Shown here: positions 775-24,700 of the stretch, piece by piece
Position numbering within the stretch: the first letter of the stretch is position 1
Layout of the letters: the number at the start of each line of letters is the position of its first letter
Source: Ectocarpus siliculosus
Taxonomy: Eukaryota; Sar; Phaeophyceae; Ectocarpales; Ectocarpaceae
Reading direction: 5' to 3'
NCBI GenBank assembly: GCA_000310025.1
Contig: FN648069.1
Coordinates: forward strand, 309,987 to 335,867
Length of the DNA stretch: 25,881 nucleotides
Program-made: the position numbers and the translations under genes
The notes under the pieces: generated by a model
Database searches by the model: none
What the model saw: the letters and a program-made list of their open reading frames with translations, nothing else
Told to the model about the DNA's origin: nothing

Positions 775-3700
775 CTGCGGTCGCGTTTGGTGCATCCGCT
801 TTATGGTGTGAGATTTATGAATCAATGTCTTCCAAGGCCATGAAAAAAAAAAAAAGTGCGACCGACCAACCGCTCCGCTCCGAGACAACCCAAAATTGTG
901 GGTATGGGTTCTCCTAATTATTCAATATTCGGTGTGTTTGAGAAAAAATTTTATGGGGGGGGGTGTAGTCATACTCATACTCATAGTCGTGCATGCCGTA
1001 GTCGTTAGACCATTGACCTCGCATCCCTACAAAGCGGGGACGGAGCACGCCGGGTTTTCACCGGACCAGACTCTCACATAACCAAGCGCGAAGCACCGTA
1101 ATGTATTCGGCCACTATACATGGCTCTTTCGCGTAGTCATTACCCGTCACGACACAAAGTCATGTTCCTCCATTCTTTTCCGGGTTTACTTTTTTTTTTT
1201 ATCCCTGTGCTCGGATGCCATTTTACGCCGCCCTCGCTCATGCCTCAGGTCTTTATTGCTTCACGAGTCGATCTGCGTTTCTTAAGATAAGGGGGGAAAA
1301 GGCACGGAATCCACTCGCCTGGTGGAACAGGTGAAGCAGCGGCTTGTGCGCGCCGCAACCCGTGTGCACCCTCGGCAAGAGCTGCCACCGGTGGAGCGCC
1401 AGCTGCACGCAAGACATGCACAGCTTCTCCATCCCCTGCACCTTGTTGTCCACGATAGACTGTAGACAGAACGCCGCATGGGTGGGGGGGGGCGGGGTGG
1501 GGTTACAAGCCGTGTGTTTTATTTTTGTTTTTCGGGGGGGGCGAAGATGAATTTAACGACGGACAAACAATGTTTTTCCGCCGTCCGTTTACTCATGCAC
1601 CTCCTCCCGATTTGATGTTCGCGTTGGCGGATCCCCCGCCACAGGACCACACGCACAAGGCTTGGTGTGCGACAAAAACTGGCATACCCAGTTGCCCTTG
1701 CACTCTTCACACACAAGATACATCTAGATATTATCATCTCTCTCTTTACCACACCTCGTGAAAGCAGACTTCTGGCGCGTCTTCCCAACACGACACCTCC
1801 AATATATCTACTAGGCGGCGCGCACGCGGTTCATCTCGACTTACCAAGTAAATTTCGTAGATCTTGTAGAACGGCGAGCCACCCTCCGTCGCCGCCGCCA
1901 CCGTCGGACTGTCCATGTTAGCACGGACCACCTACGAACAAACAAAACAATGTGCTTGTTGCTGCTGCTGATATTTGTCATTGTTGTCGTTGGTGGTGTA
2001 GCATGCGCTGTTGTTGTCGTTGCTGCTGCCAGTGCGTTGTTGTTTCTAACCATCGCCGCCACCATCGCCGCCACCATCACCGTCACGAAGCAGGAACATC
2101 AAAGCACCAACGGCCACACAACGACTATAATACGTTTACAACGATCGGAACACTCACGTCCCACGCGCGAGCCTTCCACGCGGACTCCATCATCAACTCC
2201 GGGTACTGCAGCGTTGACGAGAAGTCCACCAACACGCTCCACTGCGACAGCTGCCTCGTGCAATCGATCCATCTCTCCTAAAAACGCGAGGGGGCGACGC
2301 ATTTTCAAAGCAAGGGGGGGTGCAGCATCGAGGGGGTGACGTGCGGGGATTAACGACCGGAATCATCGTTTTCATCAATTTGTCGCTCGAGACGGTCGCT
2401 TGGTGATGAACACTGTCGTGTGTTTTCCTCCATGTAATCTCCCAAGAAATCAATCGTCGGCATCACTGTAGGTGACATTAGATATCGCACACCCTCGACT
2501 GATTTGCAAAGCTCCAAAAAGGGTGGTGGCGCCCAAAAGGCGGGAGGCGTTGGGACAGCTTCGTCAAGAGCTTTCCGAAAACATATCGTTTGAGTTATAA
2601 ATTCTCTTCGTCGTGGAGTAATCGGAGCTCGACAATCGGTTCAGGGCGTGAGATACCCTACGTATATCTGTAGCAGACGAACTCCGACAAATTCGAGCAT
2701 ACTGCAGTACCTGAGAACTGGGTCACCGTTTTGACTTGGCTCACCTCCCACGTCTCTAGCTCATCCTGGCTCACGTGCGCCGTGCCTGCGCCGCTCTGCT
2801 CCCTCGCTATCAGGTCTAGGTACAGATGCTGCGCCTCGACCGTTAAGCCGTACGTCTCCAGCGACAACGCCACCTGAATAAGCATGCCGCAAAACTTTCA
2901 TCATCAAACGCAACGCTTTCTCCATGTTCTTTTTCAACACACCAAGTAAAATTGTGTCCCAGATACTGCCAAACACTTTGATCATCAAACGGTTTCATGC
3001 CATTTTTTTTATCTCCATATATTTCATTTATCACAACAAACAATCACGTCTCGCTTTTGAATCCCAGGTCTGCCGTCGGCCGCCAGTTCTGCACATTCAT
3101 GTAACCGCCAACGGCTCACCCCTGGAGAAAATAAACAACCCCAGGGGATGAGACAAGCAAACGGATCCACTCTTCGCATGTACCTAACCCCCCCATCCAG
3201 GACGACGAGACAAGCTCTACAAACGCAGCATGCAAACCTTCGCATGTATTCCGCTGTGCTCCTCTTACTGCCGGGTGTGTGCTCGCACCCGTTCTCTTTC
3301 CGCAGCTACGGAGAGATACGCTCACATACCCGCCCACACCCGCCCGGATAAGCATCTCCATGACCCAGACAACTCAAAGCTAAAGCGAAAAAAAAAAAAA
3401 ACGTTGATCACTTTCAAATCAGCGCTCACAGCATTATCTGCTGGGTTGTTGTTGTTGTTGTCTTTACGTTAAAAACCGTTCCGGTCTCCACTCAGTACCT
3501 TCTAATGTGGGTACTGGTCCAACTGACGCGGACTCCTTCCGTGGTCACAAGCCAATTGCCCCACCAAAGGGGGGGGTACACCTTTCAAGGAACAAAAAAA
3601 AATGGACACCAAAAAGTATTCCTCCAAGGCGTACGAGTTCCAATTCGTGGTCACACGAAAAGGGTGCCGCCCCCTGAGGCGCCCCCTATCCCTCCTGCGG

Positions 3701-21700: not shown

Positions 21701-24700
21701 AAAAAAAGTATAGATATAAATAACCAAACCAAGGAGAAACCAATGCCTCAAGAAAAGCATATAACCACTTGGTACATACGCCCATCCTCTCTGAAAAAAA
21801 AAGGGTAAAATAAGGTACAGCAGTACCTGGTCGGCCCTGCTGGTGAGGCTCTTGAAGAACAGCGAGATGCACCGCGTGCGGGCGTCCTTGAGCACGTCCG
21901 TCTCCATGAACGCCTCCGGCTTGGTCACCATCACGATGTGCATCAGTCGGATCGCAGACACACGCAGCTGGAGGGCGGTCGTGATGGCGGCAAAAAGAAA
22001 AGCGCATAGAGATGAGAAAAAGAAAAAGACGAGCTGGGATACATGCTTTCACGGCAGCTTCTCGCGGAGACACGAGGTAAACGAAAACAAGCACACACGC
22101 TACAGTTTTCTGACACGGAGACACGACCTACAACACACAAAAACACACCGCTTCGCAGGGAGATGGCCGCAAAAAACTACACCAACACACGGGTCATCGC
22201 AAGGATGATATCAGACGATAATGAAGCAAGCGAGAACAGACGACGGAAATGTTGCGAATGGGTCGGTGAGAGGCTACGCCCAGGAGCTTGTAATGACGAC
22301 TGGGAATCGGGTCTTGCCGGTTGGATCAGGGTACTGGGTAGGGGGGTCACACGTGAAGAACAGAGTACAGCAGCAGCAGCAGCAGCAGCAGCAGCAAACA
22401 GAACACAACCACCGCACATGAAAGGCATGCGGCAAAGAACAGCAATAGCAACAGCAAACAGCAAACAGCAAACACCCAACACACCCAACACACTTCACGA
22501 GAACAGCAACAGCATCAGCAAACAACACACAACCACCCACACCTGCACGACGTGCGGCAGCTCCGAGGGAGACTGCATGTCCCGAACCCCCGTCTTCGAC
22601 GGGAAACCCGTGTGCGTGGAACGTGAGCCGGGGAGGGAGTTGTAGAGAGCCGGGATCGCGTTTCGCCCGGGGTCGAGGTCGTCAGTCTCCGTCATGGCCA
22701 GCACCTCCCCCAAGATCTGCATCACCTTGGAAGTTACCGTCAGCAGCTGCGGCTTGAGCATCAGGCCGTACGTCAGCGCCTCGAGCATGCCCACCTGCTG
22801 AGAAGCCTGAGGAACAGCCGCAAAAAAAAAAAGGCGAGAGTTTGCGAGGCGTGACAACGGGCAATGGTGTAAAAAATCGGGACCATGTGGAGGAGATCGG
22901 GATGAAGGGCATACCTCCTTCCTATCGACCCATTCCCCGGGGACACGAGATACCACAAAATGCGTCTGTACCATCATAAAATGTTAAATCTTGAGCTTCA
23001 CATGTTCTCTCGCGACTCTCTACCCCCCCCCAGGCCGCTTTCACCCAAAGCCGCTCAGGCCTTGCTGCTGGCATTATGTTTCGAGCAAGTCTCCGCATGT
23101 ACCACCCCCGCCGTCCCCAGGCACCTGTACTCCATTCGTATCTGCCTGGCAGGCTTGTTGAAATGGATGACTCTAGCCTTTCTGGCGACGAGCAAAGCGA
23201 GAAAGAACAAAACAAAATGCCGACGACGATAGCAACAAGCAACAGACAACAAATACAGTGGACAAAGCAACAAAACAACATGACTACCCTACCACCACCA
23301 CCACCACCACCTCCACCAAAACCACACCTGCACCGCCCGGAGCTGCTTCGAAAAGATGTGCCCCTCCACGGCCCCCCTGCAGGGAGCCAGTATGTCCGTC
23401 GTCGAACACCCCTTGGCCGCCGCCATGAGCTCGATCGCCCTCTTCGCCGTCGACCGGACGGTATGCCGGTAGTTGGACAGCTCCGTCGCCAGCAAGTGCA
23501 CCACGGGGCTCGCGATCACTACCTCGGGGGGGCCAGAGCTCCGCTGCTCCCGTTTGTCGCGCGTTAGGTAAGACGGAAGGACGGCGGGGGGGGGGGGGTC
23601 GGTAGCAAGGTGCGGAGGGGGGGAGGGGGGTACTCATGTTTCGCATGCCTGAGCAGTTAGACCATTAACCAAGCGTCAGTCCTCGAGAGGACGGAGCATT
23701 GTTTCCCACAGGATCGATCACCGATGGCCAACCGTTCCTTCCTACTCTGCCAAAGGTGGGGGTAGATGGGGGGTGTGGTAAGGATAAGATTGATTTGGAG
23801 AGGATATTGCATGTTGGCAGGTGAGTGCAAACGCCTGCGAAGGTTGGGATTCGCTGTGGCCGGGGCTACGGGGTCGTTAGCGCCGGGCGGCGGGGGAGGA
23901 GGAAGCGACTATAAACAATACCTGGTAGGGTGACCCCTCCCCGAGCACCACATATGCGCGAGACCTCAAGCCTCAAGCCAGTGGCGTGGTAAGAGCAAAG
24001 CGCGGGCAGACTGTTCTACGACGCGTTACCTCTTCTCTCCGTGCGATCAAACTTATCGTCGTCAGCGCTGGGTGAGAGCTTGAGGCACGCAGCTCGTGAA
24101 AAAAAGTGCAGAAGGAACGCGGTACACTGCAATTCCAGCTGCCGCCGCCGCCGCCACCACCGCAACTTGAGCAGCCCGCTACAAGTTGGAGCAGACGAGA
24201 CGAGAGACTAGGTGGCGCTCTTCCACTTGCATCGCCAAGGCGCGAGCGCCTGCTCACCTTGCCCTGGTTGCCAGACGAGTCAGGGCTCGGCGTGTCAACC
24301 TCCATCGCGGTGGCGCCGCCACCGCTGCTGCCGCCGCCGGGTGCCCCCGAAGCGGCAGCCGCAGCCCCCACCTTCGAGGGTGAAACCACGCACAAGCGAA
24401 AAACAACGTCCGGCGCGTGACGATGGATGTCATGGAATGAGTGTGAAACCACGCACAAGCGAAAAACAACGTCCGGCGTGTGACGGATGGATGCCATCAA
24501 ATGGGTCGTGTACCAGGTTCGGTGAGAGCGAGGGGCAGTTAAGGAGGGCGGCGGCGGCGCGCCGAACAAGTCAACCCGCATCGAGTGAACCCACTACCGC
24601 TGTGGCCGACTAAGACTCTCCTCCACCTACTGCAAGGAGGTGTGCGGCCCGAAAAAAACGCGCGGTGAGAGGCATGAAACCGATTCTCGAAACTCGATTG

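What the first reader, a model, noticed from the sequence alone, without database searches (positions are those of the whole stretch)
955..23727. Same-orientation tRNA-like repeats deliver poly-C tracts to 3' splice sites
Eight copies of a short repeat (near 955, 3948, 4093, 5494, 15851, 17012, 19082 and 23616) all lie in one orientation. Each ends, on the coding strand, in a run of about 9-20 C. In six of eight cases that run is 20-90 nt upstream of an exon acceptor (exons 32, 30, 15, 13, 10, 3), although introns average about 500 nt. Either insertion is targeted or selected at 3' splice sites, or these introns were created or remodelled by the element, as described for introner elements in some other algae. 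The link to introners is inference; position and orientation are seen directly.
Basis: partly seen in the sequence, partly recalled or inferred. Interest (0 to 1): 0.78.

Follow-up and report, generated by a model that had tools for sequence, protein, structure and literature searches.

The report
Retrotransposon landing in C-rich splice tracts
Eight fragments of a jumping element sit in one gene of a probable brown alga, mostly just before the points where introns end, apparently because the element inserts into runs of C that lie there; it looks like targeted insertion into existing introns rather than the making of new ones.

Summary
The eight copies, their single orientation, their C tracts and the closeness of six to 3' splice sites (22-72 nt in my draft gene model) are real. 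The tRNA label is not: ARAGORN and Rfam find none. The repeat is the 3' end of a 5'-truncated LINE and of a ~600 bp relative; its sense strand is that of the host gene, TRRAP/Tra1. A long copy holds a 915-aa frame with a reverse transcriptase domain. Of 44 short copies, 29 have a run of six or more (C in the element's sense) at the other junction too, against 0-2 of 44 at shifted positions, and 9 have exact target duplications (shuffled 0.2). In the window alone 3 of 8 show the run. So the element inserts into oligo-C tracts. In TRRAP these lie mostly on the gene strand before acceptors, which accounts for orientation and position without intron creation. In a sample of 63 copies (one contig, exact core) 8 lie within 100 nt of a same-strand predicted acceptor (1.6 expected), not clearly more than element-free C7+ runs (6 of 81). 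By description the families match published Ectocarpus RTE-X elements; I found no statement of a C-tract target in what I could read.

The parts
955..1111 (-). Family A copy (RNA sense = minus strand), C tail at 955-963, 5'-truncated near 1111; 156 nt upstream of the draft acceptor, so not one of the close ones
3948..4085 (-). Family A copy, C tract 3948-3963, truncated near 4085; 27-49 nt before the acceptor
3940..3960 (.). 3' copy (element sense) of the 21-nt target duplication of the 3948 element: AGTGAGGA followed by the G run on the plus strand
   Evidence: placed by reading
4085..4105 (.). 5' copy of the same duplication, at the truncated end of the 3948 element, overlapping the C tract of the 4093 copy
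   Evidence: placed by reading
4093..4172 (-). Diverged family A copy, older than 3948, which inserted at its C tract (inference from the shared duplication); G7 run at its own truncated junction
5494..5606 (-). Family A copy, 32-52 nt before an acceptor
15851..15934 (-). Family B copy, 22 nt before an acceptor
17012..17093 (-). Family B copy, 25 nt before an acceptor
19082..19146 (-). Family B copy, 31 nt before the draft acceptor (acceptor position uncertain)
23617..23759 (-). Family B copy with a broken C tract, 72 nt before an acceptor; a further C13 tract lies at 23586-23598
553..24371 (-). Host gene TRRAP/Tra1 (draft exon chain; both ends unsettled, further predicted pieces up to 25811 are doubtful)

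Best explanation
The repeats are 5'-truncated copies of a LINE family (B) and of a short family sharing its 3' end (A). The RNA sense strand is the coding strand of the host gene and ends in oligo-C. Insertion is by target-primed reverse transcription: an oligo-G strand is nicked, its 3' end pairs with the C tail of the element RNA, and the tract with some neighbouring bases is duplicated. Oligo-C tracts in this gene lie mostly on the coding strand, many of them before acceptors, so the element lands there in sense orientation; tail plus duplicated tract leave a pyrimidine tract beside the old AG, so splicing can go on. The element's tail is itself a new target, which gives head-to-tail clusters (3948/4093). 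Shown: RT frame, constant 3' end, variable 5' truncation, C tract at both junctions, duplications, C-tract bias. Inferred: priming by tail pairing, tolerance by splicing.
For: 2166 exact copies of a 15-mer of the shared core, none of its reversed control. Copies share the poly-C end and stop at many lengths on the other side. L090 has a 915-aa frame with RVT_1 (E 7e-34), nearest in the PDB to LINE-1 ORF2p and R2; its stop at 7844 lies about 5 nt before the end of the 3' motif (from the place). On the reverse strand 667 of 807 exact family A 3' ends have G6+ within 3 nt (forward counts not used because one copy is counted several times; in the listed part each reverse copy appears once). Of 44 short truncated copies 29 have G6+ at the other junction (20 of 28 in the C1 sample, 6 of 8 chosen by similarity, 3 of 8 in the window), against 2, 0, 0 and 1 of 44 at offsets of 60, 120, 200 and 300 nt; C6+ is there in 1 of 44. 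Nine of 44 have exact duplications of 9-21 nt, shuffled mean 0.2, maximum 1. Element-free TRRAP introns: 12 of 30 have C5+ in the last 100 nt, 1 of 30 has G5+. C1 sample: 8 of 63 copies within 100 nt of a same-strand predicted acceptor against 1.6 expected; element-free C7+ runs 6 of 81. Of 9 distinct acceptor-side exons within 200 nt 4 have Pfam matches above cut-off on the predicted strand.
Against: 35 of 44 short copies have no exact duplication by my test and 15 of 44 no G6+ run at the far junction, among them 5 of the 8 window copies. Of the element-free runs of C10 or longer in the C1 loci, 0 of 32 lie within 100 nt of a predicted acceptor, so the longest tracts do not follow the rule. 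In 54 copies chosen by similarity only 2 are within 100 nt of an acceptor (no random control was made for that group). At C7+ the strand bias of tracts outside TRRAP exons is only 11 to 6 (29 to 8 at C6+). Antisense copies near predicted donors are also above chance (9 of 63 within 200 nt, expected 3.1) and above element-free C7+ runs (3 of 81, P = 0.03), which acceptor-tract targeting does not explain, though none of the 8 exons of that class scanned (nor the ninth) had a Pfam match above cut-off. In the window elements are closer to acceptors than element-free C6+ runs (6 of 8 against 12 of 38, P = 0.04), so an added preference or selection is not excluded. No endonuclease domain was seen.
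Confidence: 0.8

Rival explanations
1. Introner: the element created these introns or their 3' ends when it entered exons.
For: Sense orientation and closeness to acceptors; introners are common in aquatic lineages (PMC9860276, abstract and passages).
Against: [quoted passage not shown] here only the acceptor-side part of each intron matches the families, and introns with elements are 293-838 nt, within the range of all draft introns (143-1238). The 21-nt duplication of copy 3948 and the 18-nt one of L080 lie in the intron, with pyrimidine tract and AG downstream, so at these two sites the AG is not the element's.
Confidence: 0.04
2. Random insertion followed by selection: copies survive only where a C tail does no harm or helps, that is, in sense before acceptors.
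For: A published analysis reports intronic elements shorter and more degraded and suggests selection (PMC12477816 section 7); window elements are closer to acceptors than element-free C6+ runs (P = 0.04).
Against: C tracts flank both ends of many copies and are duplicated, which selection on position does not produce; copies with no predicted exon nearby also have the tract.
Confidence: 0.1
3. Chance in one gene: the window is an outlier and the genome shows no link to splice sites.
For: Only 8 of 63 sampled copies are within 100 nt of a predicted acceptor; 2 of 54 in the similarity-chosen group; orientation in Pfam-backed genes is 10 to 3, P = 0.09.
Against: 8 against 1.6 expected has P = 0.0003; five Pfam-backed loci (L040, L058, L059, L068, L080) have a sense copy 36-80 nt before an acceptor, though L058 and L059 overlap in the genome and share a gene.
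Confidence: 0.06
4. tRNA-derived SINE whose box A strand is the plus strand of the window.
For: The core resembles a tRNA box A by eye (recalled consensus).
Against: ARAGORN and Rfam negative; the constant end and tail are on the other strand, and the long family has an RT frame on that strand.
Confidence: 0.02

Closest known systems
RTE-X LINEs and RTEX-N1_Ec32 of Ectocarpus sp. 7 (PMC12477816)
   Same: An abundant ~600 bp non-autonomous family sharing its 3' end with autonomous LINEs; 5' truncation of LINEs; many intronic elements; genome of similar size (200 Mb there, 189 Mb here); median autosomal intron 524 nt there, about 470 in my TRRAP draft.
   Different: I read the abstract and sections 5, 7, 10, 11 and 15 and searched the main text for splice, microsatellite, target site, tail, homopolymer, poly-C, C-rich, polypyrimidine, acceptor and insertion preference: no oligo-C target or link to 3' splice sites was stated. 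The supplements, which hold notes on each family, were not readable.
Target-specific LINEs (CRE, R2, R4, NeSL clades, some HERO families; PMC4640811, passages)
   Same: LINE insertion into a defined repetitive target, microsatellites included.
   Different: Those clades encode a restriction-like endonuclease, and the targets named are rRNA, tRNA and other genes, telomeres and microsatellites such as (TG)n; here the target is a homopolymer found in introns as well as elsewhere. The endonuclease here was not seen.
Introners (PMC9860276, abstract and passages)
   Same: Element copies in many genes, tied to splice sites.
   Different: Here the element occupies only part of an intron and brings no full intron.

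Membership tests
LINE (non-LTR retrotransposon) | Reverse transcriptase of LINE type | tested here: met
   L090 915-aa frame: RVT_1 E 7e-34; best PDB relatives LINE-1 ORF2p, then R2
LINE (non-LTR retrotransposon) | Constant 3' end with tail, variable 5' truncation | tested here: met
LINE (non-LTR retrotransposon) | Target duplications of variable length | tested here: met
   9 of 44, 9-21 nt, shuffled mean 0.2; 35 of 44 without an exact one
LINE (non-LTR retrotransposon) | Endonuclease domain | tested here: inconclusive
   No Pfam endonuclease match in the three frames scanned; the long copy seems truncated, as another family B 3' end lies at its start
RTE-X clade | Place in the RT tree among RTE-X | not testable with these tools
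   No RTE-X reference proteins at hand; only the published description agrees
Introner | Similarity reaches near both splice boundaries of the intron | tested here: not met
   Family matches cover only the acceptor-side part of the seven introns
Introner | Intron absent before insertion | tested here: not met
   At 3948 and L080 the duplication lies in the intron upstream of AG; the other copies were not decided
tRNA-derived SINE | tRNA-like head with Pol III boxes | tested here: not met
   ARAGORN and Rfam negative in the window
Target-specific LINE | Insertions share a sequence target | tested here: met
   G6+ run at far junction in 29 of 44 against 0-2 of 44 at shifted places

The most novel reading that the evidence does not exclude
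The LINE lives in the splicing signal as a renewable safe site: each insertion into a C-rich polypyrimidine tract duplicates the tract and adds its own C tail (and a CTAAC, branch-point-like by recalled consensus, in its core), so the acceptor keeps working, the site can be hit again, and over time the 3' ends of many introns become element-derived.
Probability: 0.2. Interest if true: 0.8.

Novelty: new variant of a known kind. Interest (0 to 1): 0.5.

Why it matters
A LINE with a homopolymer target that coincides with a splicing signal would show how a retroelement can live inside genes at low cost, and would explain strand and position bias of intronic elements by target sequence instead of selection. 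It would also warn against reading element-at-splice-site patterns as intron birth.

Tried and rejected
tRNA origin: rejected. The first gene finder run overfitted, giving 110 exons, and was replaced by a stricter one with 49 (38 of 60 nt or more were used for introns and acceptors), then for the sample by a model trained on other loci. That model recovered 32 of 37 of my TRRAP exons of 80 nt or more at threshold 25, 23 of 37 with the exact acceptor, with no wrong-strand call; the truth set is my own model, backed by homology for gene and strand. It was trained partly on the loci it was then used on. A first duplication test used bad element boundaries and found 14 of 123 of 8 nt or more (10 of 123 of 10 nt or more; swapped controls 3.8% and 0.8%). 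A second (43 copies) lost window copies 955 and 19082 by a slip in removing duplicates, and held one copy at the end of its locus; one search mends this (44 copies; five short copies dropped for N, or for an end of the locus). Of the nine duplications, that of 17012 (an A run) is weak. The branch-point idea (CTAAC in the core) is not backed: by eye 5 of 8 window copies keep it. The sample L039-L088 was chosen by an exact core on contig C1, so it favours young copies; of 64 copies in it one lacked flank and was dropped, and at least one copy seems to be counted twice (L041/L042). Four of the 87 copies matched no other copy in that test, and lengths above about 1,600 nt are cut by the flanks held. 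Papers searched for a prior report: judged by titles and the openings of abstracts; none showed one. Subscription papers and supplements were not readable, so absence from print is not shown. My note gives 26 nt between frame and tail; about 5 is right.
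Full report
What was checked. The window (25,881 bases; G000:C476:309987-335867 of a 189-Mb genome in 492 contigs) holds a gene on the minus strand that matches Tra1/TRRAP: Pfam Tra1_ring in four of ten frames scanned, three above cut-off, and PDB Tra1/TRRAP chains, best E 2.8e-38. The eight repeats are present at the stated places, all in one orientation. In my draft gene model six of eight C tracts lie 22-72 nt before an acceptor. 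With position uniform in the intron, six of seven introns within 90 nt has P about 1e-4, and one orientation for eight copies P = 0.008, both after the window was picked for this feature. A second model trained on other loci gave three of six, partly because it places fewer acceptors exactly (23 of 37).

What the repeat is. A 15-mer of the core occurs 1114 times forward and 1052 reverse, its reversed control never. In 87 copies compared with each other (four matched no other), the end with the homopolymer is constant and the other end stops at many lengths, past 1,600 nt in family B (where the held flank ends) and at most about 700 nt in family A. That polarity makes the homopolymer end the 3' end, so the RNA sense strand reads ...GAGTA and one or two more letters, then C, on the coding strand of TRRAP. 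A longer stretch (L090) has a 915-aa frame on that strand with RVT_1 (E 7e-34), closest in the PDB to LINE-1 ORF2p and then R2. A published survey describes RTE-X LINEs in 16,418 copies and a ~600 bp non-autonomous family of over 6,000 copies sharing their 3' end (PMC12477816, section 5). Families A and B fit that description, but sequences were not compared. tRNA origin fails.

The target. Of 807 exact family A 3' ends on the reverse strand, 667 have G6+ within 3 nt. Of 44 short truncated copies (28 from the C1 sample, 8 chosen by similarity, 8 from the window), 29 also have G6+ at the other junction: 20 of 28, 6 of 8 and 3 of 8. At offsets of 60, 120, 200 and 300 nt the counts are 2, 0, 0 and 1 of 44; C6+ occurs at the junction in 1 of 44. 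Nine of 44 have exact duplications of 9-21 nt with at least three non-G letters; shuffled pairing gives a mean of 0.2 and at most 1. One of the nine (17012, an A run) is weak. Clear ones are L073, L080, L024, L037 and window copy 3948. This is what target-primed insertion at the end of an oligo-G run would leave. The other 15 of 44 show no such run, through age, short runs or wrong boundaries; I cannot say which.

Why acceptors. In 30 element-free TRRAP introns C5+ occurs in the last 100 nt of 12, G5+ in 1. Outside exons and elements the gene strand has 29 C6+ runs and 8 G6+ runs (P = 0.0008); at seven or more it is 11 to 6. If insertion follows the C6+ ratio, eight of eight in sense has a chance of about 0.14, so the orientation needs no further cause. 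In the sample of 63 copies from contig C1, 8 lie within 100 nt of a same-strand predicted acceptor (1.6 expected at random places) and none has an opposite-strand acceptor within 200 nt on its other side (2.9 expected). In the 54 copies chosen by similarity it is 2 of 54. Element-free C6+ runs in the same C1 loci give 10 of 147 within 100 nt, C7+ 6 of 81, C8+ 5 of 55 and C10+ 0 of 32; 8 of 63 does not differ clearly from the first two (P = 0.18 and 0.40), while the last goes against a simple rule. Against a pure acceptor story, antisense copies near predicted donors are in excess as well (9 of 63 within 200 nt, 3.1 expected; one search lists the nine exons). None of the 8 exons of that class scanned has a Pfam match above cut-off, while 4 of 9 acceptor-side exons do (the exon of L045 belongs to both classes and was scanned there, without a match).

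Homology-backed genes. Chained peptides of 30 locus-strand sets of 40 were scanned (two of the 30 only in part). In 12 loci with a Pfam match above cut-off there are 10 sense and 3 antisense copies (P = 0.09); two borderline loci would add one of each. These are not all independent: L039/L040 and L058/L059 are neighbouring or overlapping stretches with the same domain. Five of the sense copies lie 36-80 nt before an acceptor. The orientation bias is therefore suggestive outside the window, not proven.

Introner test. [quoted passage not shown] Here the part of each intron not covered by the families is longer than the part covered, and introns with elements are 293-838 nt against 143-1238 overall. 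Copy 3948 carries a 21-nt duplication; seen without that insertion, the older copy 4093, the C tract and the AG stand together, so that insertion did not make the acceptor. L080 gives the same picture in another gene (molybdopterin-binding domain). The other copies were not decided this way.

Judgement. The finding is a real pattern with a simpler cause than intron birth: a LINE that inserts into oligo-C tracts, in a gene and probably a genome whose acceptors often carry such tracts. Target-specific LINEs are a known kind (PMC4640811, passages); this target and its overlap with the polypyrimidine tract I did not find described in the searches listed. Whether the element's tail is then used in splicing is open.

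Noticed in passing
window 13011-13308: Nested inverted repeats (114-nt arms 88% complementary, inner 30-nt arms 93%) within the TRRAP gene region; looks like a foldback or hairpin element.
   Followed up: no
window 24960-25395: Inverted sequences around GGACGGCC...AGGCTTG at both ends, by eye, suggest a short terminal-inverted-repeat element beyond the draft exon at 24258-24371.
   Followed up: no
L028, L034, L007, L057: Copies lie head to tail, one starting at the C tract of the next, as for 3948/4093 in the window.
   Followed up: partly
window 23586-23598: A 13-nt C run (gene strand) between the 23617 element and the acceptor, not part of the element as matched; perhaps an unfilled target of the same kind.
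   Followed up: no
L045 1329-1471: A predicted exon with a sense copy before its acceptor and an antisense copy after its donor, with a G tract straight after GTGA.
   Followed up: partly
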